Below are positions 5,027 through 27,103 of a stretch of DNA of 27,103 bases, one piece after another; positions within the stretch are counted from its first letter, which is position 1; every line of letters begins with the position of its first letter. The translations under genes and the position numbers were made by a program. A model generated the notes under the pieces. It made no database searches, was not told the DNA's origin, and saw only the letters and a program-made list of their open reading frames with translations. The stretch comes from a virus, in IMG/VR virus record IMGVR_UViG_3300032053_000422, positions 1 to 27,103 of that record. One strand, written 5' to 3'.

Positions 5027-5617
5027 TTACCGCTGTGCGGCCGCAATGATCTGCGCGGTTACTTGCGCGGCCTTCATGAACTCGAGGGAAGCGGTCTTGT
5101 AGATGGTTTCAACAGTATCGTTGTAACCCTGCACGTAAGACTCTTCCGCTTGCTTCTCCAGGTCGGCCTTAGCGGTGTCGTACCCAAGCTGCGCGGCCTG
5201 CTTCACCAGTTCCGCGTTTTCCTGGGAGAACTTGCTGTAGTCAATGGCAACCGGTGAAATCTTAGAGACCGGAGTACCGGAGACCATCTGTTGCGCAGTC
5301 TTATTCCACTCCGCCATACGGGCGATCGCAGAATCGGCAAAAGCGGCGCCCAGAAGCTGCGCCTCTTTGACGGCTGCTTCCTTCTCAGCGCCGGCAAGCT
5401 CCTGCGCGACCTTCATCACATCATCAACTGGTGACGCCGCCGGGGTGGCGACTGAAGCAGATTTCTCTGTTGAGGAGAGCGCGTCGTGCAGTGCCGAAAC
5501 AAGCGACGACTGAGTAGAGGCGGTCTTCTCCGCGACAGGAGCGGAAGTATGGTCGCTGGCCTGCTTCTCAGCAGCCTGCACCTCACGGATACCAGCAAGA
5601 ATTCGGTCGATCTTCAT
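5027..5617 (-). CDS. Scaffold-like protein (196 aa)
   Basis: The start is an ATG after a GAGGG ribosome-binding site. The protein is rich in Ala, Glu, Lys, Gln and Ser, with no cysteine and little predicted tertiary core. Helical and coiled-coil stretches lie around residues 60-90 and 125-190. It holds five EKxA motifs: AEKQASD, AEKTAST, TEKSASV, AEKEAAV and LEKQAEE. It follows the protease-like gene and precedes the decoration and capsid genes, the classical place for a scaffold. It would act inside the prohead and be removed before packaging. Composition and position are the basis for the call. Confidence 0.55.
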   Translation of the reverse strand: MKIDRILAGIREVQAAEKQASDHTSAPVAEKTASTQSSLVSALHDALSSTEKSASVATPAASPVDDVMKVAQELAGAEKEAAVKEAQLLGAAFADSAIARMAEWNKTAQQMVSGTPVSKISPVAIDYSKFSQENAELVKQAAQLGYDTAKADLEKQAEESYVQGYNDTVETIYKTASLEFMKAAQVTAQIIAAAQR

Positions 5618-5672: not shown

Positions 5673-7655
5673 CTACCGGAGCAGCACACTACCAATTTTT
5701 TCAACGACAGCATCAATATCAATATCAGGGGATAGCACACTGTCTTCTGCGTTACGCGATCCTAGCGTACCAGCGTACTCAGAGAATTTACTGAGTGCAT
5801 GTCTAACGCCGCCATAGGCGCCCAATGTCCCTAGCACGCCAAGCGACGGGTTATCCGCGTAGAACGAACCGAGCCGATCCAGTACGCGCCGCCCAAGCGG
5901 GGCATCCGGATCATTTACAGGCTGGCCACTTTGAAGACGAGAAACGTAGTCATGCCCCAGGGCAGCTACTAGCGCTGCGGACCCTAGAATTGGTAGCCCG
6001 ACTGAGGCCGCATCAGAGTGCTTGCGCATCTCTGTCAGTGTAGAGATTGGTATACCTTCGTCCGTCAGATACTGTGACCCGTACTCGGGACGAAGAGCCT
6101 TGCTGCCAATTAGACCGGCGGTAGCCCAAGTAAGGGGATGGTACGCAGACGGAGTGAGATGCGCTGCCAAACGCCCGCCACCAGCCAGCAGTGCTCCTGT
6201 ACCAATTAGTTTGGCCAGTTGCTTCTTAGCGATCTCATCATGGGCGTCACGCGCCGCGCCGCGTGTGGTTATATACTTATCCCCTGTCGCGGGGTCGCTG
6301 ACGTGCAGATTCTCAGTCCAGTTAGGTTCTTCAGACCGTAGCTGGGGCGGTAGAAGACTCCGCGAGAGGTAGTCGGTAATAGTGGAGCGCTTCTCAAGAT
6401 ACTTTTCAGCGACTACACCAATCTCAGGATTTACGTTACCGACAGTATGCTCGTACATCCCGGTGGCCCCCAGTTGCTCGAGAAGCTGAGGGTGCGCTGC
6501 GAACAAGTCGAAGATGTGCCCCTGCATTGCTACAACGCCATCTAGTACATGCTCCGGAATTTGGGTGCCCGGCGCTAGGCGTTCTACAATCATTTTAACG
6601 AACTCAGGCGTAGTTAGAATTACGCCTGCGGCCGATAGCGTAGAAAGTACTTGGGCTACCGGGTACTTGGCTAGAGACTTGATAGTACCGTCGTCGAAGG
6701 AAGGCATCCGACTGACAGCCGGTAGAATCATATCCCGATACTTCTGGGTGTTGTGTACGTCGAGCTCTGAGAGAGGAGACGTCTTATGATCAACTGGTAC
6801 GCCACGGACGACTTTGTCGATATCAGCGATCTTACGAATCGCTGCCCTCTTCTCCTCTACGGAATCCAGGTACTCCCCAAGCTCGGCGGACGTACGTACC
6901 GTATATGAGCTTTCATCCGCGACTTTCTTCATCATGAATCCCGTAAGATCTGCGGGTTTCACGACAAATGAAATGTCGAAGAATTTAGGGGAGGGATTAA
7001 GCGCGCCAGCGCGAAGGCCACTTGGCGTTACTTGGCGCATCCCAAACTTAAGGTGGTCGCAATACTGTTTACGCGTCGGAGCTTTGTGCCCGCAGATGGT
7101 ACAAACGTCATACTTGATCCGGCAGCCCATCGACACCGCAGGATATTCTCCGGCTTCAATGCGTTCCGCCAAGTCAGGCGCCAGATCATTACGAAGACCT
7201 AGAAGTAGCTCAACGCGGTGCATCTGAGGATTCCAGAAAGACTTGAGCACGTCGCCGCAAGCTTTCAACGGATCCTTGTTTTGGTGGTGCCGGTAAATCT
7301 TGCCATGCTCTTCGAAAGATTTGTAATGATTCGGAAGGACCTCTTGCTGCGTAACCCAGGCGCCGTCAGACGAGCAGCAGCCACACGTAGGCTTAATGCT
7401 ATTCTTGTAGGGGAACTCGTTGAAACCGTCACCGTTACGATTCAAGTCATATGTCTCGTACGCCCCGAGAGCCAGTACGAGAACGATGCTAGTGCCAGGT
7501 TTTGGCTCTACGGCGCGAATGTAGTCGGACGCCTCGCTAGCCGTCTTGGTGAATCGTTCACGCAAAGGACGACCATTAGCGCCCCATAGGAGCACAGGCT
7601 GAACCGTCGCTTCGCCAGTAGCGAAGTGCGTGTCGATCTCGACTACCTTACGCAA
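5673..7655 (-). CDS. Prohead-protease-like protein with zinc knuckle and long C-terminal extension (660 aa)
   Basis: The start is a TTG behind a GAGG site; a stop lies just upstream in frame. It overlaps the previous gene by 8 bases. Residues about 55-245 look like a head-maturation serine protease. After a GAYETYDLNRNGDG block come IYRHHQNKDP (His123/124, candidate catalytic His), a strand block MHRVELLLGL, then YPAVSMGCRI (Ser175, candidate nucleophile). A zinc-knuckle-like cluster follows at Cys185, Cys188, Cys199 and His201, and then FDISFVVKPADLTGF. This region alone is near the size of a normal prohead protease. The remaining ~400 residues are helical and contain Gly-rich hydrophobic stretches near 482-520, 552-567 and 604-618. 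The extension is unusual; it could be a minor head protein fused to the protease. The position upstream of the scaffold and capsid genes supports the call. Confidence 0.7.
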   Translation of the reverse strand: MRKVVEIDTHFATGEATVQPVLLWGANGRPLRERFTKTASEASDYIRAVEPKPGTSIVLVLALGAYETYDLNRNGDGFNEFPYKNSIKPTCGCCSSDGAWVTQQEVLPNHYKSFEEHGKIYRHHQNKDPLKACGDVLKSFWNPQMHRVELLLGLRNDLAPDLAERIEAGEYPAVSMGCRIKYDVCTICGHKAPTRKQYCDHLKFGMRQVTPSGLRAGALNPSPKFFDISFVVKPADLTGFMMKKVADESSYTVRTSAELGEYLDSVEEKRAAIRKIADIDKVVRGVPVDHKTSPLSELDVHNTQKYRDMILPAVSRMPSFDDGTIKSLAKYPVAQVLSTLSAAGVILTTPEFVKMIVERLAPGTQIPEHVLDGVVAMQGHIFDLFAAHPQLLEQLGATGMYEHTVGNVNPEIGVVAEKYLEKRSTITDYLSRSLLPPQLRSEEPNWTENLHVSDPATGDKYITTRGAARDAHDEIAKKQLAKLIGTGALLAGGGRLAAHLTPSAYHPLTWATAGLIGSKALRPEYGSQYLTDEGIPISTLTEMRKHSDAASVGLPILGSAALVAALGHDYVSRLQSGQPVNDPDAPLGRRVLDRLGSFYADNPSLGVLGTLGAYGGVRHALSKFSEYAGTLGSRNAEDSVLSPDIDIDAVVEKIGSVLLR

Positions 7656-15457: not shown

Positions 15458-17257
15458 TTAGTAACGCCCTTCGGGGCCCATACCGAATTCAGCGCCATAA
15501 GCATAGGCAGATACCGGATGTGTACTATGGCGATCTGACGCTGCACCAGTGCGCGCGCCCTGGAGAAGACTGTCTTTGAGATATCTGTGCGCTAGGCGGG
15601 CCATCCAGTCAGGGTGCAGCAGAGGATTCCGCGCCAGGGGGCGCATGAGAAATTCTACTTTGGGGAGGCTAGTCGCCACAGTGACGGAGGTAATGCCGTG
15701 AGATTTCAAAGTGGTCAGGGCGCTAGCTGAAAGCGGAGTTCCAACGGTGAAATGCAGAACTTCTTTCCCCAAGGTTAGGCCTTCCGCCTGGTTAAGGGGA
15801 ACGACTTTTCCACCGCTAGCAGCGGCGTCACGGTAAGTCGTATAGGGGAGTACTTCGCCCTTTATGAGCTCAGGGTGTTCGTCGGAGTGCTCTAGTACTT
15901 TGATGTGGCTGAGATCAGCCCTGGCGACCAGCTCAAGATGCCGCTTATCGACGTCGATGCCTTGGCGCTTGTAAATGTCATGGAGCGTGTCAACGAGGTA
16001 TTGTCTACCGGCGCCAAAACCTTTATGGAGAATGAGGTCATCGGGTTTAGGAATTCCTTCAGAGAGAATATCACCAGCTTCTACTTTCTGACCCGTAGAC
16101 ACCACGGCTTTCAGGTTAGGTCCCACGTAGTGCTGCGTATCTCCAACATAGATATGGCTACCGCCATGTGACGCTGGAACGATCTTAGTAACGGTACCGG
16201 CGTGCTCTGCGAGAGCGGCCTTGTTGATGAAGTTCTGGGGGACTTCCAGAAGCTGACGGATACCAGCGATACCTTCCAACTTTGGTGAGGTACCTTTCAG
16301 AACGCGCATACCGTGCTTAGCCCCGAGGGCCATTTGCGTCAAGGGCTCCGAGATCGATTGTGCGGCACGAACACCAACATTGATACCAATAGCGTGCGGA
16401 CGCCCGCGCTCATCAAGACCCTGACATTTTCGGCAAACGCCGTCGGATAGGTCGCATGTCATTGGTGATCGGACATACACAGTCTTGACAGCGTCACGTA
16501 GTTTCGATGCGACAGCTTTTGTTACAACATCATTGCGGTGAAATCCTGCTTGATCTTGAGATAGGTAACGGTCAACGACATTGCCGTCTTGGCTATTCAG
16601 TGCGATTCCGTTATGCGTCCCACAGTCATCGGCTGTAATAACCATGGGGTACATACTATTAGTCATGATCTTCGACATATCGCCAGGTTCGGCGATAGCG
16701 GTGTATGTCTGTACGGTGTTGTGGCGAGCCTCGTTACCGGCGGCCCAGTGATCCGCGGCGGACAGACCTTCTGCGTATGACTTACTGATGAGCCAGGGAT
16801 TGATAGCTCCGCGACCCGTGGTAGTCGCAACTGGAGAAGCAATTGTCTTCATCAGCTGGGGGATATTTCCGCGGGCGCCTGAAAGAGCCATGGCTGTCAT
16901 AGAGCCAGGATGTGTTTTGGTATGCTCGAGCATCCTCTTCTGGACATCGAGTATGATGTTTTCCTTCTCCGCCATAGTCTTAGCGTTTTTCATGGCCGCT
17001 ACACCAGGCGCCATGATCGCATCACGAGACTTATATTCTGGCGTGATATCATCAAGTCCGACCGAGATACCCTCTAGAGTAGAGAGGTCATCTCCAAGCT
17101 GTTTAAGCTTACTCACAATCTCTACATACTCCGTGGGATCCTCCTGCGCGAGATCCAGCATCTTCTGCTGGAACTCTTTTTTATTCAAAGTGCCCGTAAC
17201 GTGATGCTTAAGCGGCAGCAACGAGTTTACGAGGTACTTACCTAGAGTCTGGGACAT
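15458..17257 (-). CDS. RNA polymerase beta' subunit, C-terminal half (599 aa)
   Basis: This is the catalytic-core C-half of a bacterial-type beta'. It starts MSQTLGKYLVNSLLPLKHHV, matching beta' just after the double-psi barrel region (E. coli TTVGRAILWMIVP). SGARGNIPQL (126-135) leads into the bridge-helix region (about 155-195). A zinc site has Cys212, Cys268, Cys275 and Cys278 (DDCGTH, CDLSDGVCRKC). AAQSISEPLTQMALGAKHG (298-316) is the trigger-loop segment. His315 aligns with the catalytic-loop His, while the neighbouring Arg is Gly. A jaw/clamp C-terminus follows (LHDIYKRQGIDVDKRHLELV). It must assemble with the fused beta-beta'N protein encoded 2 kb upstream. No Shine-Dalgarno is obvious; a 7-bp hairpin lies just before the start. 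Confidence 0.93.
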   Translation of the reverse strand: MSQTLGKYLVNSLLPLKHHVTGTLNKKEFQQKMLDLAQEDPTEYVEIVSKLKQLGDDLSTLEGISVGLDDITPEYKSRDAIMAPGVAAMKNAKTMAEKENIILDVQKRMLEHTKTHPGSMTAMALSGARGNIPQLMKTIASPVATTTGRGAINPWLISKSYAEGLSAADHWAAGNEARHNTVQTYTAIAEPGDMSKIMTNSMYPMVITADDCGTHNGIALNSQDGNVVDRYLSQDQAGFHRNDVVTKAVASKLRDAVKTVYVRSPMTCDLSDGVCRKCQGLDERGRPHAIGINVGVRAAQSISEPLTQMALGAKHGMRVLKGTSPKLEGIAGIRQLLEVPQNFINKAALAEHAGTVTKIVPASHGGSHIYVGDTQHYVGPNLKAVVSTGQKVEAGDILSEGIPKPDDLILHKGFGAGRQYLVDTLHDIYKRQGIDVDKRHLELVARADLSHIKVLEHSDEHPELIKGEVLPYTTYRDAAASGGKVVPLNQAEGLTLGKEVLHFTVGTPLSASALTTLKSHGITSVTVATSLPKVEFLMRPLARNPLLHPDWMARLAHRYLKDSLLQGARTGAASDRHSTHPVSAYAYGAEFGMGPEGRY

Positions 17258-17887: not shown

Positions 17888-18046
17888 TTATTTGTTGGAA
17901 CTGGACAATCTGTTGGGCGCTACGGAGTTCTCTTTACTGCCAACCAGGGCTTCTCGCCGCTTTACGGCATCCTCCAACTTTTTAGCCAACTCCTCTCGGG
18001 CTAATTGCCGCCCTTCTTCGAAAGCTAGCTTAAGATGTGGATTCAT
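17888..18046 (-). CDS. Small helical protein (52 aa)
   Basis: I chose the ATG at 18044-18046 because AAGGAG lies 8 bases upstream. The frame extends further to 18172, but that part overlaps the nuclease gene and is not protein-like. The product begins MNPHLKLAFEEGRQLAREEL and is one long charged helix. The start resembles those of the next two genes. It overlaps the end of the HNH gene by 17 bases. Confidence 0.6.
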   Translation of the reverse strand: MNPHLKLAFEEGRQLAREELAKKLEDAVKRREALVGSKENSVAPNRLSSSNK

Positions 18047-18617
18047 CGTGGACTCCTTCAATGCTAGCGTGACGCTTGAGGTACTCAATAGCACGGGACA
18101 ACCGCACGGGGGACTCCCTAGCGAATCCCAGAAGAGTGTTACACGCGGGACAAAGAAGATCGCGCACGGCACCAGTTGTGTGATTGTGGTCTACGCATAA
18201 AAAACGATGCTTGCCTGAGGGAGGGTCGCCGCAACAGGCGCAAAGGCCCCGTTGCCTCTGTAGCCTCGCAGAGTAGGCGTCCAAGGAAAGCCCATACGTC
18301 TGGAGCAATTTTTTCCTACGTATTTTAAGATACTCAGCAGGATTCTTACGTCGCCATTCCTTTGCGATAGCTATAAATTTTTCAGGATCACGGCGATATT
18401 TATCTCTACTCGCCAAAAGAACATTCTCTCGATTCTTGGCGTACCACTCAGCGCTCCTACGTTTGGCTTTACCTGGATTCGCGGAGTCCCAGCGCTTCAC
18501 GCGGAGACAAACACAGCTCTTACACTCGCTAGTTCTTCCGCATTTAGCCCGTCTATCGATGTAGAATAACGTAAGTACTTTTTTATTACCGCAGGCGGTA
18601 CGGGTCTTAGTCAGCAT
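18030..18617 (-). CDS. HNH / endonuclease-VII-like nuclease (195 aa)
   Basis: The C-terminal half has the fold signature of recombination endonuclease VII-like HNH enzymes. A GLCACCG zinc pair (Cys126, Cys129) is followed by LCVDHNHTTG with the catalytic His cluster (about 142-148). LLCPACNTLLG then gives the second zinc pair (Cys156, Cys159), and ARESPVRLSRAIEYLKRH ends the domain. The N-terminus has a Cys-containing zinc-like segment. Charged repeats (EWRRKNPAEYLKIRRKK) lie in between, as in free-standing homing nucleases. I chose the ATG at 18615-18617, just after the upstream stop; another ATG at 18656 would overlap the ferritin-like gene. The gene is visibly AT-richer than its neighbours, which suggests recent transfer. 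It would cut DNA and spread itself. Confidence 0.85.
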   Translation of the reverse strand: MLTKTRTACGNKKVLTLFYIDRRAKCGRTSECKSCVCLRVKRWDSANPGKAKRRSAEWYAKNRENVLLASRDKYRRDPEKFIAIAKEWRRKNPAEYLKIRRKKLLQTYGLSLDAYSARLQRQRGLCACCGDPPSGKHRFLCVDHNHTTGAVRDLLCPACNTLLGFARESPVRLSRAIEYLKRHASIEGVHDESTS

Positions 18618-18621
18618 AAAG

Positions 18622-19230
18622 TTATTTTTCACATAGGAACATGCGACGCAAATCATCTGCGTGTTTCTGATCGACTAAAACTGTATTTTCTATCAGTACG
18701 CGTAATCCCGTATTCTCCCCACATAGAAGAAGAAGTTCACGCCCACAAACTATCAATTCTTTCTCCGCTTGTAACAGCGTAATGAAAATTTGGTGAAGAT
18801 CCCCTATGTCCGGTACCCTGGATACCGCCGGTGTAGGCTCTCCTCCTAACGCGGTTATTTTCATCGCCAAATCATACGCAGCGTCTCTCTCCTCTAAGAG
18901 GTGCACATTGAAATGGTCGTAGATAGCATCCCTAAAATGCGCTCTAACACGATCCCCGTAATTCATCCACATGATCACAGCGGTGTACTTCAAGCGTAGT
19001 AGAGCTTGTAGCTTTTTAACTACCTTCTCCTGCGGAACGGCGAACATGCCCTCTTCAGGGGAGACAGCTAGTGGATGCACGCCCTCCGAAGCAGTGGGCA
19101 GCGGAACTTGGGTCTCTACCTCCGCCACCTCAGGCGACTCAGGCGAAGCGCCTCCTGGCAATTCAACTAGAGCCGCCGCCTCAGCCCGCTTAATGTAAAA
19201 CTGCGTGATCTCATAGCGTGACATAGACAT
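18622..19230 (-). CDS. Ferritin-like four-helix protein (202 aa)
   Basis: The ATG shares bases with the stop of the polymerase gene (TAATG), so the two are translationally coupled. After a Pro/Glu linker (about 20-65), four helices follow at about 67-92, 98-127, 143-170 and 174-198. The second has HLLEERDAAYDLAMKITALG and a following GEP turn, and the fourth has LIENTVLVDQKHADDLRRM. These are close to bacterioferritin/Dps-like helices. The diiron ligands are only partly kept: the helix-A Glu appears to be Lys81 and the helix-B ExxH lacks its His, while DQKH remains in helix D. Iron oxidation is therefore doubtful. It may be a structural or storage protein. Its link to the polymerase is by position only. 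Confidence 0.6.
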   Translation of the reverse strand: MSMSRYEITQFYIKRAEAAALVELPGGASPESPEVAEVETQVPLPTASEGVHPLAVSPEEGMFAVPQEKVVKKLQALLRLKYTAVIMWMNYGDRVRAHFRDAIYDHFNVHLLEERDAAYDLAMKITALGGEPTPAVSRVPDIGDLHQIFITLLQAEKELIVCGRELLLLCGENTGLRVLIENTVLVDQKHADDLRRMFLCEK

Positions 19231-22200
19231 TAGCCCACCTCGACCTTGGTACCTAGGGTGATCTCACCGCGTTTATACGCGGCCAAAGCGTCAGATTTAG
19301 TCTTATACTTATGCGTCTTCCCGTTCGGCGAAGCTTCTGCTTTAGACGCCAAGTGCACTCCAAGCATAGCTTCCATCCGGGGAGCTACCATCAAAGAATC
19401 CTTGGCCAGGTCTGAGAAGAGAAGATTCGATAGCGTCATTCCCTTAACTTCCTGAACAGCGCCAGGGAGCACCGGAACATGAATCTGAAAGGTATCCCCG
19501 TCATAGTCAGCGTTCATTCCTAGCTCAATGAATGGATTGACGTGGATTGTCTTCCCCGCGACGGGTACAGGATTCGCTCCTACGAAACCGTACCGATGCA
19601 GCGTCGGCGCTCGATTGACCATGACGGGACGTTCCTTGAGCTCCGCCATAAGAGCGTCGTTCGCCGCCGGGTGTTTATTCTCAACCATCTCTTTGGCGGC
19701 TACCGCGCCAAAACCTCGACGTACCAAACGAGCAATAACAAATTTGCCGTACATACCCCAGAGCATGTCTGTAGGTAGACCGATCTCATCCATCCCGAGA
19801 GAGCCGTCGGGCGCGATTGTTCCGCGTCCGGATACGTCCTGCTGACGCTTCATTATCTTCTTCTGAAAGAAACTACTCTTAGGAGTAGTCTTGCCTGTTA
19901 GGTGCTCGAGTAAGCCTTTCACGTTACGCTTCAAAAGCTTGGGGTTGTCAGACTCGTTGGTTCCGATCACTGCGCCCACGGCGTTAGCCAGGTTCTGCCG
20001 TAGTTTGGCATGCTCATCTGGGGGCAAGGTATTCTCATCCACCTGCCGCTGCAGCGATTTATTGTGCAGCATGGCGCTTTGATAGAGATAGTTGGAGTCC
20101 CCAACCACCAACTCAGAGCCGCTCTTGCCGGGAAGAATGGGGCGCATTACAGGAGGTAGTACGGGTAGCTTTGACAGTACATAGGCGTCCCCGGCCTTGA
20201 GATTCTGTCGGTGTAGGGCGTCAAGGAACTTGATCTGTTTTACCGCGTCGTCAAGTTTGGCACCTTTTATAGTTTTGAGAGACGTTCGAAGTTCAGCTAG
20301 GCGCCCCGTGACGTCGATAGCATTGAGCCGTTTCTTCATGACGGCTCCGCCGTTGGAGTAGTAGTGCGCCTCAAATTCTTTAGCCGTCAAACCTAGTAGC
20401 CGCCGGGCAGGGTCAACGAAAATAGGATTCATGATCGGCTCAGCGAGCTCGATGTGACTCCACCTGGTACCTGTTGGGCCGCCAGTAACTGCGGGGTCGA
20501 ACAAGCCCCCACGTTCCGGGGCTAGGTCTTTAGCTCGAACTAGTTTTTCGTTCTGAATGGCTCCGGACGACATCTTAAGAATGTCGTGATCTGTAAGAGG
20601 CGATAGAGTACTAATGCTCCCCCGAGTATCTACCTTCACGCCAGCGCCGTGCAGCATCCCGACGAACTTGTCGTAGGCGAAGGATGATTTAAGCGGAGGG
20701 AGCGGGAGTCCTAGCTGAACAGCGCGCCAAAACTCATCATTCTTTTGGCTCTTAATGACGGCGGTCTCCCGCAGAACATTGCGAGCATTATGCGCTACCA
20801 GGGCATTGAACTCCATCTTGCCGACGGCCTTGGCCCCGTTGTCCCCGCCCTTGATGGGCTGTTGATTGACGTCATAGGCTCCAGTACCGCGAGCAGCGAA
20901 GTTGGTCTCCGTTGTCTTGAACAACCGGAGCACGTACTGAGGGCCTACTAGGATACCCGGAATCTTCTTTCCAGATACGGGATCGAATAGGGTCTCTTTG
21001 TCCTTGACCCCATGCTCCTTAGCCAGATTCTTAGCCCACTGTACGTTGTCACGCCCAGAGAAGTTCTCCACGGCGATGGGCTTCCCCATCTTCCTCGCAA
21101 CCTTGGCTACGACTGTCTCCAGGATCTGCGCGGGGTTGATACGAGAGATAACGCCAGCAGAGGTATACAGAACCTCGAGGGGTTTACCGCTCTCATCCTG
21201 TAGCATCTTATGGTCGGGTACGATCATTGACACAACGCCCTTATTGCCGTGGCGCCCTGTCAACTTATCCCCCACGCGCATGGGCTCTTTTGTCTTGACC
21301 GTAACGACGACGCGCTTATCCGTTACGTGAACGTCGATCACTTCTCCAGGATAGTCGTGCTCCCATGCTCTAACCAACTCACGATATGGGTTCACGAGCG
21401 TCTTCTTCAAATTACCGAGAAGCATGTCCGATGCCGACATCTTGCCGCGAACAACCCCAGCGATAAGGATATCATGAGGCATTACAACCGTGCCCTGCTT
21501 TACTACACCATTGGACCCCAGCTTACGATACTGATCCTGTGTGTACTTAATGCCGTAATACTGTTGATGAATGTCGCGGCCAATCGTAGCGTCACGTTCA
21601 ACTTCTACGATCTCCTTATACATATGTTCGGACGTCAACTTCTCCGCGGCGCCCTCTGAGATGACAACTGCGTCATTGGAGTTCATGCCATAGTAGGGAA
21701 CATACCCAATGGTCATGTTGCGGCCGAGAGCGAATGTGCCATCCCGCGTGAAGTTCGACTCTGCCAGGTGCTGGTCAGCTTCAACGTGATCCCCGGGCTT
21801 AACTAGCAGCTCGTGATTGAGGTGCGTCTTGGACGCGAATGGTAGATTCGTATCGTAAGGCACCCTAACTAGATCTTTATCCGCGGACTCCTTAGTACGC
21901 TCCGCCAGATAATCGTCCTTGAACTCGTCCCAGGTGTATTCTTTCAAAGATCCGAAACCCCATTCGGGGCCATGCTTCTCGTAGGCGTATTTCGCAGCAT
22001 CCTTTGAGTCGAACCCCACCATACACTTGTCTTCGTCGTGCGAGCCGTCCTTCTTCTTCTGACGAACGACGTATACATGATCGAAGACACCATCCTCCTT
22101 GAGGTAGATATCCACCGTCTCCCCATCATCTCCAACCGTCTTGGGGATGTGGCCGTACGCCACGTACATCTTCTTCTCCCACTTCTTACCTTCGGGAGAA

Positions 22201-23891
22201 ACGCCAGAGCGTACGTCGCCGGGCTCGAGCTCAATTTTCATCAGAAGACCGTTGATCGTCTTCTGACGCTTAACGGCTCCAGCGCGCTTCTCAACCATAG
22301 GGGTATATTCTTCAGACTGCTTCTTCCCAGACGGATCGATGTAGATGTACTGACCGTCGATCTTTACGACTTTACCCGCGACAGGTGACGTAGGCAGAGC
22401 GAGGGAAGCGAGTACCTTTTCCCAGCTTGAATGCGCAACGCCGTCCTTCACTATGCCGGACTGTACGAGCGGGACCTCGCGATGGATGAGGGGAAGCGCT
22501 TGCGTCTGTACCTTACCCCCCATGATGCCACGGTTCCCCTGCACAGACTCAAGGAACGGAATCATATTAGTTACAGGTGAGTAGAGCTGTGAAGCGTCCC
22601 AAAGTTCGTGGGTAACCTGCGAGGCAGGAACGCTGTCCACCTGGCCTTTGCGCATGACGGCTACTAGCCCAGACATCTTCTGTTTTGGGAAAGCCACTAC
22701 CGCCTTGGCCATCTGCGCGGCTGACAGCATTTCTGTCTTGTGCGTCTTTACATTGTTTACCGGCGTATAGAGATTACCGGCAGCGTCTCGGTGCGTCTCC
22801 ATCGCGGTGCGGATGTCGATGCCTGCCCGAAAAGACTCAGACGTACGAATGGGGTCCAGAATGCCGAGATGGCTTGAGTGAATGGTTCGGGCTTCGGCGG
22901 GAATCGCTCGCTCGTTGGCGATGCCGCCTTCACCCAGAGAAGTAACCCTAACGGCGTGATCAATTGCCTCCACGGGGTTGATGTGTGTAGGGATAGAGCT
23001 CAGCTGGGACCCAGTGAGGAAGCTTCGGATGCCTGCGGAGAAAGGCGACGCTGGTAGAATCGCGCGAAGCTCAGTCTTATGCGTAGCGCGGCCTTTAACC
23101 TTCATGGCCAACGTACGCGCGTCTAGAGCGATACGCTCTTTGATGAAATCGTCTACGGAGTGGTACGTCTTGAAGTGAAGAGCATCTCGATCGTCTGTGT
23201 CTTCGTTGTCTTTATAGACATGCAACAATCGCTTAGACGCCACAAGAAGAGACTGCGGAGTCACAGAGGAGAATTCATGACCCAGGGTCTCCTTAGTTAC
23301 TTCTGGGTCCATCGACGTAGCGGCGTAAGCTGCTTTCACCGCCTCAAGCTGAGTTTCAGGAGTTGTAGCGGTTCTCTTCGATGGGTGTGACAGCTTCTCA
23401 TAGAGCTTCGACAAATTCTTGTCGTGCTTACCCTCGAACGCTGTCTCGTTCTGCTTAGCTACTTCAGCCCCCCAAGCGGAGGAGATATCGGCGTGGGGTA
23501 CGCCCAGTTTACGCAGTACAGAGTAAAGCGGAATCGCTGTAGTACCATATTCTATATAGGGGTGGCCCTTGGCAGGATCAAGCGACAGACGGAAGTTGGC
23601 GCCCTTAGATAGGTTGAACGCCGCCTCGAGTTCTTCGTTACCTCGGCGACGCGTATAGACGCCCGGCTTCAGTCGTAGCTGATTGGAGACGTTGTACTCA
23701 TTACCGTCAATGATGAAGGTGTGCCGTCCCGTGAAGTAGGGAAGATTGAGCAGGGTAAAACCTTTTACCTTCTCGATCTCCTTGCCGTCAGCCCCTCGGA
23801 GCACGACGGTGCCCTTTACCTGTTCGTAGAGGGACCCCCCACTGAGCAGAGCCTGCTTCTGGTCATGGGGCCCAAAGTCATGCTGGTGCAC
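19230..23891 (-). CDS. Fused RNA polymerase beta + beta' N-terminal half (1553 aa from first GTG)
   Basis: Residues 1 to about 1095 are beta. FTGRHTFIIDGNEYNVSNQL and LKPGVY correspond to the GTFIINGTERV region, SSQLSS to the beta fork, GRNMTIGYVPYYGMNSNDAV (723-742) to the GYNFEDS block, and GDKLTGRHGNKGV (874-886) to the active-site Lys block. Residues about 1098-1553 are beta' N-half: LTDHDILKMSSGAIQ, PERGGLFDP, SHIELAEP, then KLPVLPPVMRPILPG (1241-1255), NRAPTLHRYGF (1426-1436) and the catalytic NADYDGD (1460-1466) with all three Asp. The first beta' zinc domain is missing between GGLFDP and SHIELA. A pyrophosphatase-like domain is inserted at about 522-665. The protein ends at the point where the separate C-half begins. 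The GTG at 23891 is unlikely to be the true start (see the 23892-24022 entry). Confidence 0.93.
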   Translation of the reverse strand: MHQHDFGPHDQKQALLSGGSLYEQVKGTVVLRGADGKEIEKVKGFTLLNLPYFTGRHTFIIDGNEYNVSNQLRLKPGVYTRRRGNEELEAAFNLSKGANFRLSLDPAKGHPYIEYGTTAIPLYSVLRKLGVPHADISSAWGAEVAKQNETAFEGKHDKNLSKLYEKLSHPSKRTATTPETQLEAVKAAYAATSMDPEVTKETLGHEFSSVTPQSLLVASKRLLHVYKDNEDTDDRDALHFKTYHSVDDFIKERIALDARTLAMKVKGRATHKTELRAILPASPFSAGIRSFLTGSQLSSIPTHINPVEAIDHAVRVTSLGEGGIANERAIPAEARTIHSSHLGILDPIRTSESFRAGIDIRTAMETHRDAAGNLYTPVNNVKTHKTEMLSAAQMAKAVVAFPKQKMSGLVAVMRKGQVDSVPASQVTHELWDASQLYSPVTNMIPFLESVQGNRGIMGGKVQTQALPLIHREVPLVQSGIVKDGVAHSSWEKVLASLALPTSPVAGKVVKIDGQYIYIDPSGKKQSEEYTPMVEKRAGAVKRQKTINGLLMKIELEPGDVRSGVSPEGKKWEKKMYVAYGHIPKTVGDDGETVDIYLKEDGVFDHVYVVRQKKKDGSHDEDKCMVGFDSKDAAKYAYEKHGPEWGFGSLKEYTWDEFKDDYLAERTKESADKDLVRVPYDTNLPFASKTHLNHELLVKPGDHVEADQHLAESNFTRDGTFALGRNMTIGYVPYYGMNSNDAVVISEGAAEKLTSEHMYKEIVEVERDATIGRDIHQQYYGIKYTQDQYRKLGSNGVVKQGTVVMPHDILIAGVVRGKMSASDMLLGNLKKTLVNPYRELVRAWEHDYPGEVIDVHVTDKRVVVTVKTKEPMRVGDKLTGRHGNKGVVSMIVPDHKMLQDESGKPLEVLYTSAGVISRINPAQILETVVAKVARKMGKPIAVENFSGRDNVQWAKNLAKEHGVKDKETLFDPVSGKKIPGILVGPQYVLRLFKTTETNFAARGTGAYDVNQQPIKGGDNGAKAVGKMEFNALVAHNARNVLRETAVIKSQKNDEFWRAVQLGLPLPPLKSSFAYDKFVGMLHGAGVKVDTRGSISTLSPLTDHDILKMSSGAIQNEKLVRAKDLAPERGGLFDPAVTGGPTGTRWSHIELAEPIMNPIFVDPARRLLGLTAKEFEAHYYSNGGAVMKKRLNAIDVTGRLAELRTSLKTIKGAKLDDAVKQIKFLDALHRQNLKAGDAYVLSKLPVLPPVMRPILPGKSGSELVVGDSNYLYQSAMLHNKSLQRQVDENTLPPDEHAKLRQNLANAVGAVIGTNESDNPKLLKRNVKGLLEHLTGKTTPKSSFFQKKIMKRQQDVSGRGTIAPDGSLGMDEIGLPTDMLWGMYGKFVIARLVRRGFGAVAAKEMVENKHPAANDALMAELKERPVMVNRAPTLHRYGFVGANPVPVAGKTIHVNPFIELGMNADYDGDTFQIHVPVLPGAVQEVKGMTLSNLLFSDLAKDSLMVAPRMEAMLGVHLASKAEASPNGKTHKYKTKSDALAAYKRGEITLGTKVEVG
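21909..22259 (-). other. InPase-like (inorganic pyrophosphatase-type) domain inserted in beta
   Basis: Residues about 545-661 of the fused polymerase do not match beta. They read TINGLLMKIELEPGD, then HIPKTVGDDGETVDIYLKED, FDHVYVVRQKKKDGSHDEDK, CMVGFDSKDAAKYAYEKHG and WGFGSLKEYTWDEF. This is the layout of the InPase domain known from phage polyvalent and head-associated proteins: a GxDGdxVDVyl motif, then a VyVvdQ strand, a DEhKvmlGF block and an AyxxxyxxGwG tail. Asp589, Glu591 and Asp594 take the places of the DxDPxD metal-binding Asp residues of family I pyrophosphatases, with Glu for the second Asp. The flanking beta sequence resumes at LVRVPYDTNLPFASKTHLNH. Confidence 0.75.
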
Positions 23892-25506: not shown

Positions 25507-27103
25507 TTAAGCTGCGGGCTGTGCTCCGCCTTGAGCCTTGGCTTGAGCTCCTTGTTGGTTTTGTGCATCTTCAAGTCGCTGGATCACTACCGCGTACATA
25601 ACGGCATCTTCGGCCTGGAGGGAGTGAAGCTGTGATCTACGTGACCCAGGGTCCATCTGCGTAATTTGCTGTACGATCTGGTCTGCCTGCGCGATGACAG
25701 CTTGTTGGTCGTAGTTGAGACCCTGGGCGGATTGCGTCTGTTGCTGTACCTGCTGCGCCAGGTTGTTCTGCAGCTTTCTAACTTCGTTCTGCACGCGTTG
25801 CTGGTGGCGAGCTTCATCGAGAGTTTCTTGGAGACGCTTCTCTCTCTCCTCATCCAAATCGATATCGAGACGCTCCATGACAGTAGTCATCGAAACGTAC
25901 TGCTGCCCCGACTGACCCGTCGCCATGTTGATCAGCATCTGCTTGGACTCGGTGTCATCTACTAGTTTGAGGGGTGTTAGTTTGGCTTCGATCTTCTCCC
26001 AGCCCAGGAACTTAGACATCTGGTCGGCGTACCACTGCAGCAGATCGTTCATGTCATCGGCGTGACCCTGCGTCTGATTCTGAATCATACGCAGCGTGGC
26101 TTCCATCCCTGCTTTGGTTAGCCCGCCGTACAAGAACTCCTGCGGAATACCAAGCGCTGCCATGATGCACTTGTCAGCCTCTTGGAGCTCACCAATAGTG
26201 AGCATCGCGCGACCATCTCCGCCGAGGTTAGACACACCAAGAGCGACAGGAGCCATCATGATGTGTAGCGGGTCACGCCTCCACTTCTTGATGTTATCCT
26301 TCATCTCCGACTGCCAACGAGCTAGGCTGATCTGCTGCGTGAAATCTTGCGCCCCGTTCTGGGCGGGGTGAAGAATGCGCATCGGTACGATGTGCTCTAG
26401 CGCAATTGCTTCGTTCGCCTTACGCAGCACTAGGGTGTAGAGGAACAATTTGATGGTAGCGGCTAGCGGCGGGAACCCCCACTGCTGGTCGATCCCTGAG
26501 GGGCTGGCGACCTTGATGTGAAAAAGGGCATCTTTCTCAAAGCGGAATGTCTTGTTGTCCCTAATGTTTTCCAGGAACTCGATCGGCATCGAATTGATTA
26601 GATGCTTAGACCCCGATTTAACTTGATCCTTGATGTCCTGCGGGATATTGTAATAGTATACCGACTGGCCTGTGATCGGGTTATAATCGATGTCCATCAA
26701 CTTAGGGTCCCAGCGTATGATGTGGATCTTGCTGGCCGCTAGAATCTTTCGGTCCACTACTGCGCCCTGCACGGTCTTGTTGCAGCCTGCACATACGTAT
26801 GTGAACGTCAACTTCTTAAGGTCAAACTTGTAGTCAATGTGCGTGATAGCTACCAATGCTTGGCAACCATTGCACTTGAGGCTGCGGACGAACGGTTTGT
26901 AGATGGACGTGAAATGATTGCCATAGACGTGCTTATCCAGCGATGCCATCAGCAAGGCTGCTTTGATCTTTAGGGTCTTGTCGAAGAGCCTGCGGTAGTT
27001 CCTCCGTAGCGCCTCATTCGACGTGCCGTACTCGATATCCGTAACAACAAGCTCGCCGAACTTACGCAGTGCGGCATAGACATGGGCGCTATTGTACAGG
27101 AGA
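25507..27103 (-). CDS. Portal protein, N-terminus cut by window edge
   Basis: The frame is open from the right edge (531 residues visible). An in-frame ATG near 26949 is not the true start, because portal-like sequence continues upstream of it (YAALRKFGELVVTDIEYGTS, RRNYRRLFDKTLKIKAALL). Typical portal features are WDPKLMDIDYNPITG, FEKDALFHIKVASPSG, HIMMAPVALG, and GIPQEFLYGGLTKAGMEATL. A helical stem (MQNQ-type, DLLQWYADQMSKFLGWE) and a Gln-rich C-terminal helix tail follow. A zinc ribbon (two CxxC pairs, 26782-26874) is inserted in the clip/wing region. It would form the dodecameric DNA channel at the capsid vertex. Confidence 0.85.
   Translation of the reverse strand, partial: LLYNSAHVYAALRKFGELVVTDIEYGTSNEALRRNYRRLFDKTLKIKAALLMASLDKHVYGNHFTSIYKPFVRSLKCNGCQALVAITHIDYKFDLKKLTFTYVCAGCNKTVQGAVVDRKILAASKIHIIRWDPKLMDIDYNPITGQSVYYYNIPQDIKDQVKSGSKHLINSMPIEFLENIRDNKTFRFEKDALFHIKVASPSGIDQQWGFPPLAATIKLFLYTLVLRKANEAIALEHIVPMRILHPAQNGAQDFTQQISLARWQSEMKDNIKKWRRDPLHIMMAPVALGVSNLGGDGRAMLTIGELQEADKCIMAALGIPQEFLYGGLTKAGMEATLRMIQNQTQGHADDMNDLLQWYADQMSKFLGWEKIEAKLTPLKLVDDTESKQMLINMATGQSGQQYVSMTTVMERLDIDLDEEREKRLQETLDEARHQQRVQNEVRKLQNNLAQQVQQQTQSAQGLNYDQQAVIAQADQIVQQITQMDPGSRRSQLHSLQAEDAVMYAVVIQRLEDAQNQQGAQAKAQGGAQPAA

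What the first reader, a model, noticed from the sequence alone, without database searches (positions are those of the whole stretch)
21909..22330. Pyrophosphatase-like (InPase) domain inserted inside beta
About 120-140 residues unlike beta sit between the segment ending KVVKIDGQYIYI and the one starting LVRVPYDTNLPF. They carry the GDDGETVDIYL, VYVVRQ, DEDKCMVGF and WGFGSL elements of the InPase domain found in phage polyvalent proteins. Family I pyrophosphatases cleave PPi, the product of every nucleotide addition. Having such a domain inside the polymerase could drive synthesis forward, or the domain could be a binding module. I know of no such insertion, but I could not search.
Basis: partly seen in the sequence, partly recalled or inferred. 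Interest (0 to 1): 0.85.

Follow-up and report, generated by a model that had tools for sequence, protein, structure and literature searches.

The report
Pyrophosphatase-like domain inside phage RNA polymerase
A bacterial virus carries a pyrophosphatase-like domain spliced into its own RNA polymerase, at a spot where related viruses insert different domains or none, which suggests that the polymerase doubles as a carrier for proteins injected into the host; neither the activity nor the delivery has been tested.

Summary
Residues 519-673 of a fused beta-beta' RNA polymerase (window 21873-22337, minus strand) are a 155-aa in-frame insert; 535-659 are Pfam InPase (E = 2e-32), modelled at pLDDT about 97, with family I inorganic pyrophosphatases as closest solved folds. 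Metal-site residues (E554, D589, E591, D594, D619/E620, K622) are conserved and the domain is under purifying selection. New here: the site is a hot spot. Of 90 different related RNAPs, 72 have a 7-37-aa linker there; 18 carry at least four kinds of InPase, GNAT acetyltransferases, an unknown domain, or a multi-domain InPase-kinase insert. Other insertions of 80 aa or more look like inteins. The tree forces at least seven gains or losses, and inserts are exchanged between RNAPs. In cultured relative Arash the homologous beta gave the most spectra of all virion proteins, and InPases typically sit in injected 'polyvalent' phage proteins. Best reading: virion RNAP beta has become a carrier of effector domains, the InPase acting on PPi or a nucleotide signal early in infection. 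A cis role in driving transcription is possible but less likely. No activity has been shown.

The parts
19230..23891 (-). Fused RNA polymerase beta + N-terminal part of beta' (1553 aa from the first GTG; open frame 1604 aa)
   Evidence: Pfam Rpb2_3, Rpb2_6, Rpb1_1, Rpb1_2; NCBIfam rpoB/rpoC partial matches; AF2 model, core Z about 34 to bacterial beta
21873..22337 (-). Whole insert, residues 519-673, between KIDGQYIYI and LVRVPY
   Evidence: Alignment with relatives that have a 7-37-aa linker here
21915..22289 (-). InPase domain, residues 535-659
   Evidence: PF18823 E 2e-32, 6.8e-36 in six-frame search; AF2 pLDDT about 97 over the domain, family I PPase fold
22230..22232 (-). E554, probable counterpart of E20 of E. 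coli PPase
   Evidence: 90% or more conserved in 72 InPases; counterpart by eye against the E. coli Ppa sequence
22110..22157 (-). YG-x8-D-G-E-x2-D motif, residues 579-594 (Y579, G580, D589, E591, D594 = E. coli Y55, G56, D65, D67, D70)
   Evidence: Aligned to E. coli Ppa by profile comparison; Y579, G580, D589, D594 invariant in 72 InPases
22026..22037 (-). Second acidic motif D619-E620-D621-K622 (region of D97/D102/K104 of E. coli PPase)
   Evidence: D619, E620, K622 invariant in 72 InPases; register against E. coli not settled
22278..22292 (-). EKRAG linker motif (residues 534-538) at the N-terminal edge of the domain
   Evidence: EK-x-A motif enriched in this gene cluster and flanking inserts in relatives
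19494..19514 (-). NADYDGD catalytic loop of the beta' part (residues 1460-1466)
   Evidence: N, D, D, G, D invariant or nearly so in 55 relatives
15458..17257 (-). Rest of beta' as a separate gene (599 aa)
   Evidence: Rpb1_5 E 3.6e-19; rpoC partial match
25507..27102 (-). Portal-like gene upstream of the polymerase (runs off the window)
   Evidence: 30% identity to annotated portal Gp204 of phage Arash, E 1e-85

Best explanation
The insert is a polyvalent-protein-type InPase domain (a distinct branch of the family I pyrophosphatase fold), plugged through flexible linkers into a beta-hairpin turn of the beta-bD1 region of a virion RNA polymerase. The polymerase is packed into the head and enters the cell with the DNA, so its beta subunit serves as a carrier for host-acting domains, as MuF, portal and DarB proteins do in other phages. 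The InPase would hydrolyse PPi, or a related phosphoanhydride such as a nucleotide-type defence signal, in the first minutes of infection; other phages of the group load the same socket with an acetyltransferase, an unknown domain or a multi-domain insert. Shown here: domain identity, fold, residue conservation, insertion site, exchange and loss, purifying selection. Taken from the literature: virion packaging of the homologous RNAP in a relative. Inferred: virion packaging in this phage, catalysis, substrate, and action on the host.
For: PF18823 at 2e-32. Profile search of solved sequences hits a phage portal (9b41, 3e-44) and otherwise only inorganic pyrophosphatases, weakly (E 0.001 to 0.4). 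Foldseek and VIA top hits are family I PPases. Metal-site residues invariant in 72 InPases. pN in the domain 0.06-0.09 among close relatives, comparable to beta and well below the linkers. Site occupied in 18 of 90 RNAPs by at least four InPase types, GNAT (E about 1e-8 to 6e-10), an unknown domain and an InPase + P-loop kinase insert. At least 7 occupancy changes forced by well-supported branches. L007 RNAP 66-74% but insert about 32% identical to its sisters, and L156/L157 inserts 82% but RNAPs 66%. The other long inserts look like inteins. G001: RNAP without InPase, but a 54% identical InPase in another protein and a third in a C39-peptidase polyvalent-like protein. Phage Arash beta (Gp206, 36.6% identical) is the protein with most spectra in purified virions (PMC10585845). 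InPase domains known mainly from virion or injected polyvalent proteins (PMC5512222).
Against: No biochemical data. Virion packaging is shown only for a cultured relative at 37% identity that lacks the insert, and its authors also allow carry-over from infected cells. A beta hairpin of classical PPases is reported absent from polyvalent InPases (PMC5512222), so the substrate may differ. InPase is the commonest occupant (14 of 18), which a transcription-linked role would also predict.
Confidence: 0.55

Rival explanations
1. Cis model: the InPase removes the PPi made at each nucleotide addition, close to the polymerase, preventing pyrophosphorolysis and PPi inhibition and pulling early transcription forward.
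For: A PPase-type fold with conserved metal-site residues; InPase is the main occupant (14 of 18) and was acquired more than once; the five InPase-A genomes hold no second InPase; PPi clearance was proposed for polyvalent InPases in general (PMC5512222); another phosphohydrolase-type domain (HD) is fused to the virion RNAP beta of Bacillus jumbo phages (PMC7598289).
Against: The same socket holds GNATs and an unknown domain in relatives; 72 of 90 RNAPs do without; the domain moves to other proteins in G001; free host PPase is abundant in cells (general knowledge).
Confidence: 0.25
2. The domain is a non-catalytic binding or structural module (for example docking the RNAP in the head or holding nucleotides).
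For: A classical PPase beta hairpin is reported lost in this branch (PMC5512222); the register of D97/D102 could not be fixed; family members occur in portals and other head proteins.
Against: E554, D589, D594, D619, E620, K622 kept invariant or nearly so across 72 InPases, which a mere spacer would not require; the site is empty in most relatives, so it is not needed for packaging.
Confidence: 0.12
3. Release model, a refinement of the carrier model: EK-x-A motifs in the linkers are processing sites of the phage's head protease, so beta is cut there and the cargo domain is freed.
For: The motif is about 5-9-fold over shuffled proteins in the window and in G010 lies mostly in the 20 kb with the RNAP gene; it sits at the edges of most inserts and in many empty linkers; linkers have pLDDT under 50.
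Against: No known cleavage specificity for this group; K-A rich linkers may simply be flexible; a cut beta would have to stay functional.
Confidence: 0.2
4. The inserts are neutral or selfish passengers tolerated at a surface loop.
For: Frequent gain, loss and exchange at one site.
Against: Strong purifying selection on the InPase, conserved catalytic-type motifs, and domain types overlapping the known effector repertoire of polyvalent proteins.
Confidence: 0.06

Closest known systems
InPase domain of phage polyvalent proteins (PF18823; Iyer et al. 2017, PMC5512222)
   Same: Same Pfam family far above cut-off, same motifs; typical of (pro)phage proteins likely packed in the virion
   Different: Known carriers are MuF/portal/DarB-like/very large polyvalent proteins; no multisubunit RNAP beta carrier was found in the papers read
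Family I soluble inorganic pyrophosphatase (E. coli Ppa, Mtb Rv3628)
   Same: Same fold (Foldseek prob 1.00, VIA Z about 8), YGYI..T..DGDPVD motif with D65, D67 (E here), D70 counterparts
   Different: 17-19% identity, D67 replaced by E; a beta hairpin of the classical enzymes is reported absent in this branch; embedded domain rather than free oligomer
mReC phage RNA polymerases (Weinheimer and Aylward 2020, PMC7481178) and fused RNAP of Salmonella phage Arash (PMC10585845)
   Same: Caudovirus-encoded beta and beta' close to cellular RNAPs; Arash and Vibrio D69 share the portal-RNAP gene order and the fused beta-beta'N gene
   Different: Arash and D69 have an 8-11-aa linker at the site and no InPase match anywhere in the genome
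Virion RNAP of Bacillus jumbo phages AR9/PBS1 with an HD phosphohydrolase domain fused to beta-C (PMC7598289)
   Same: A phosphohydrolase-type domain of unknown role attached to a virion RNAP beta polypeptide
   Different: Terminal fusion to a split subunit; different fold; no exchange at one site described
Lineage-specific BEAN/HABAS insertions of bacterial beta/beta' (PMC11515920)
   Same: Whole domains inserted into loops of beta
   Different: Five known sites in uD2, uD3, uD4, uD5, not bD1; ancient, lineage-fixed and of one fold, not exchangeable enzymes

Membership tests
InPase (PF18823) | Score above the curated cut-off over most of the profile | tested here: met
   112.3 bits vs 26.8, profile 4-132 of 135
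InPase (PF18823) | Conserved YG...DG(D/E)..D and DE.K motifs | tested here: met
   Y579, G580, D589, D594, D619, E620, K622 invariant in 72 sequences
Family I inorganic pyrophosphatase | OB-type PPase fold | tested here: met
   Foldseek E 3.4e-4, prob 1.00; listed best hits all PPases; VIA Z 8.4, rmsd 3.0 over 110 residues
Family I inorganic pyrophosphatase | Four acidic metal ligands (D65, D70, D97, D102) and E20 | tested here: inconclusive
   E20, D65, D67 (as E), D70 counterparts present; D619/E620 are conserved but the register against D97/D102 is not settled by profile alignment
Family I inorganic pyrophosphatase | Hydrolysis of PPi | not testable with these tools
   needs an enzyme assay
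Polyvalent protein (injected, multi-domain) | Carries effector-type domains that vary between relatives | tested here: met
   InPase types, GNAT, InPase + P-loop kinase, or nothing at the same site
Polyvalent protein (injected, multi-domain) | Packed in the virion and delivered with DNA | not testable with these tools
   Only indirect: Arash homologue is the protein with most virion spectra (PMC10585845); gene next to portal
mReC multisubunit RNAP | Beta and beta' with conserved catalytic core, close to cellular RNAP | tested here: met
   Pfam/NCBIfam matches, NADYDGD, core Z about 34
mReC multisubunit RNAP | Falls in the published mReC clade | not tested
   The published trees were not rebuilt; assignment rests on source (IMG/VR phage contigs) and sequence
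BEAN/HABAS beta insertion | BEAN or HABAS fold at one of five sites in uD2/uD3/uD4/uD5 | tested here: not met
   Insert has the PPase fold and lies in the bD1 hairpin

The most novel reading that the evidence does not exclude
A multisubunit RNA polymerase subunit has become a general delivery chassis: one socket in beta of a virion-packaged polymerase is loaded with exchangeable enzymes (pyrophosphatase-like, acetyltransferase, kinase-containing and others) that enter the host together with the first transcribing machine and are perhaps cut free at EK-x-A linkers.
Probability: 0.45. Interest if true: 0.88.

Novelty: new variant of a known kind. Interest (0 to 1): 0.74.

Why it matters
Insertions in RNA polymerase beta known from cells are ancient, lineage-fixed and not enzymes. 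Here closely related phages gain, lose and exchange whole enzyme domains at a single beta site without disturbing a conserved polymerase core. If the carrier model is right, it ties two separate themes, virion RNA polymerases and injected polyvalent effectors, into one protein, and shows a natural position in a multisubunit RNA polymerase that tolerates grafted domains. It also makes a stated but untested idea, that phage InPases clear PPi for early transcription or destroy a nucleotide signal, directly testable because the same polymerase exists with and without the domain.

Tried and rejected
Assembly artefact: rejected, the insert occurs in several other contigs from different samples. Intein: rejected, no intein features, and intein-like inserts in relatives lie at other positions. 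Flap/SBHM-type or BEAN insert: rejected by fold. Descent from one insertion without exchange: rejected, L007 and L156/L157 show replacement or transfer. Target-site duplication or DNA repeats at the insertion boundary: none seen; no 14-base repeats in L156, only similar linker codons. Number of independent InPase gains: not resolved, because L007 and L028 domains have long branches that meet in the tree; A and C clades are sisters and may share one old gain. Full-length profile alignment to E. coli PPase: only the 24-27-column core motif aligned reliably. PHROGs and Pfam gave no identity for the first part of the L156 insert; Pfam gave none for the L018 insert, though PHROGs matches it to a family of unknown function. 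A literature search for an RNAP with an embedded pyrophosphatase found none, but only open-licence papers were searchable; one further query was malformed and not run.

Full report
WHAT IS THERE. The minus-strand ORF 19230-23891 (1553 aa from the first GTG, open frame 1604 aa) is an RNA polymerase beta subunit fused to the N-terminal part of beta', including the NADYDGD loop. The rest of beta' is the separate gene 15458-17257. Between KVVKIDGQYIYI (507-518) and LVRVPYDTNLPF (from 674) lie 155 residues unlike beta. Residues 535-659 match Pfam InPase with E 2e-32, and a six-frame search of the record gives one match, with no match in 14 control genomes.

FOLD AND RESIDUES. An AlphaFold2 model of residues 500-695 built on 72 aligned InPases has pLDDT about 97 over the domain. 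The listed top Foldseek hits are family I inorganic pyrophosphatases (best E 3.4e-4, probability 1.00), and VIA-align gives Z up to 8.4 with rmsd 3.0 over 110 residues. That Z is near the range where an unrelated fold can score, but here the sequence evidence agrees: a profile of the 72 domains searched against solved sequences finds a Pseudomonas phage portal (9b41, E 3e-44) and then only inorganic pyrophosphatases (E 0.001 to 0.4). Against E. coli Ppa, Y579-G580, D589, E591 and D594 fall on Y55-G56, D65, D67 and D70; by eye E554 falls on E20. Y579, G580, D589, D594, D619, E620 and K622 are invariant in all 72. Whether D619/E620 are D97 and D102 could not be settled. Polyvalent InPases are reported to lack a beta hairpin of classical PPases (PMC5512222), so substrate handling may differ. 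Among the closest relatives non-synonymous change in the domain (pN 0.06-0.09) is comparable to that of the surrounding beta and well below the linkers (0.17-0.35); synonymous sites are near saturation, so ratios are rough.

WHERE IN BETA. A model of residues 354-1553 from 55 RNAPs has mean pLDDT 86; the polymerase core aligns to bacterial beta at Z about 34, and the insert is bounded by stretches with pLDDT under 50. Against Thermus beta the insert replaces a short hairpin turn (about residues 606-612). That is the bD1 domain in the scheme of PMC11515920, which is not one of the five sites where bacterial beta subunits carry lineage-specific insertions.

A SHARED SOCKET. Searches with the whole protein and with an insert-free stretch of beta gave 90 different RNAP sequences. 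Of these, 72 have 7-37 residues at the site and 18 have an insert: type A InPase (8 rows including the window), a different InPase in L007, a third kind in L028, L157 and L178, a fourth in L175 (E 7e-38), GNAT acetyltransferases in L147, L168 and L163, an unknown 155-aa domain in L018 with relatives in phiKZ-like phages, and a 558-aa insert in L156 holding an InPase and a P-loop kinase. L157 reaches the InPase family only below its cut-off (E 0.0015), but its insert is 62% identical to that of L028, which passes. The other insertions of 80 residues or more lie at a few positions and look like inteins. On a tree built without the insert columns, the well-supported branches alone require at least seven changes between empty and occupied. 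The first search included one pattern from the insert, which favours occupied sites; the second used polymerase core only but kept the 80 most similar loci, so 18 of 90 is not an unbiased frequency.

EXCHANGE. L007 lies inside the type-A RNAP clade and its RNAP is 66-74% identical to its sisters, but its insert is only 32-33% identical over most of its length (44% over a 63-residue core with L043), and its best match is an InPase in a non-RNAP protein. L156 and L157 have 82% identical InPases but 66% identical polymerases, whereas L156 and L028 show the reverse. G001, a related 191-kb phage, has an empty RNAP site but carries a 54% identical InPase inside a homologue of window ORF 5673-7655, and another InPase in a protein with a C39-peptidase-like domain. 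Five large contigs with type-A RNAP InPase have no second InPase; of the others with an empty site, five have one elsewhere and nine have none (one further genome, G022, has a GNAT at the site and no InPase); contigs may be incomplete.

DELIVERY. Salmonella phage Arash has the homologous fused gene close to its portal gene. Its beta, Gp206, had the most spectra of all proteins in purified particles, with beta' fifth; the authors suggest early transcription, or carry-over from infected cells (PMC10585845). InPase domains occur mainly in phage proteins thought to be packed and injected (PMC5512222), as also seen here in head and portal families. Virion packaging in the window's phage is therefore inferred, not shown.

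MECHANISM. I consider it most likely (0.55) that beta of a virion RNA polymerase has become a carrier of host-acting domains and that the InPase acts on PPi or a related phosphoanhydride early in infection. Against it, unrelated enzymes use the same socket and most relatives have none. EK-x-A motifs at the insert edges are enriched in this gene cluster (10 against 1.1 +/- 1.1 expected in the window for the tighter pattern) and might be processing sites; this is a lead only.

NOVELTY. Each component is known: mReC RNAPs, InPase in polyvalent proteins, and an HD domain fused to virion RNAP beta in Bacillus jumbo phages with unknown role (PMC7598289). The combination, an enzyme domain exchanged at one site inside multisubunit RNAP beta, was not found in the papers searched, which cover open-licence literature only.

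Noticed in passing
L156:2555-8821 (insert at the same beta site): 558-aa insert with an unidentified first domain (YSYVPAAALPAILRDGLHSG...), an InPase 82% identical to that of L157, and a P-loop kinase-like domain, separated by EK-x-A linkers.
   Followed up: partly
L147, L163, L168 (same beta site): GNAT acetyltransferase domains of about 136 aa with a kept R-x-x-G-x-A/S type motif in place of the InPase.
   Followed up: partly
L018-L020 (same beta site): Unknown alpha/beta-looking domain (VVVKGNPRFIEGN...GHSRGADRL) with relatives among hypothetical proteins of phiKZ-like jumbo phages such as PhiPA3 and 201phi2-1.
   Followed up: partly
L207:758-2878 and L207:10998-13001 (genome G001): Two further InPase-bearing proteins in one RNAP-encoding phage: one a homologue of window ORF 5673-7655, one with a C39-peptidase-like N-terminal part.
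   Followed up: partly
L007, L021, L022, L024, L027, L028, L029, L032, L137, L138, L155, L156, L159, L160, L172: Intein-like insertions at several positions of the fused RNAP (window residues about 353-410, 878-923, 1347, 1467, 1501); L024 has three.
   Followed up: partly
window 18622-19230 and 18030-18656: A ferritin-like domain gene and a recombination endonuclease VII gene lie between the two halves of the polymerase.
   Followed up: no
L030, L031, G001, G003: Beta and all of beta' appear fused into one polypeptide of about 2070-2165 aa in some relatives.
   Followed up: no
window 5030-5617 and G010 structural cluster: Repeated EK-x-A[SAGE] motifs (EKQAS, EKTAS, EKSAS, EKQAE) in one small protein; the motif is concentrated in the gene cluster that contains the polymerase.
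   Followed up: partly
L037 (Vibrio phage D181) 2839-8353: The fused RNAP gene is split by a homing endonuclease insertion, while the close relative D69 has it intact.
   Followed up: no
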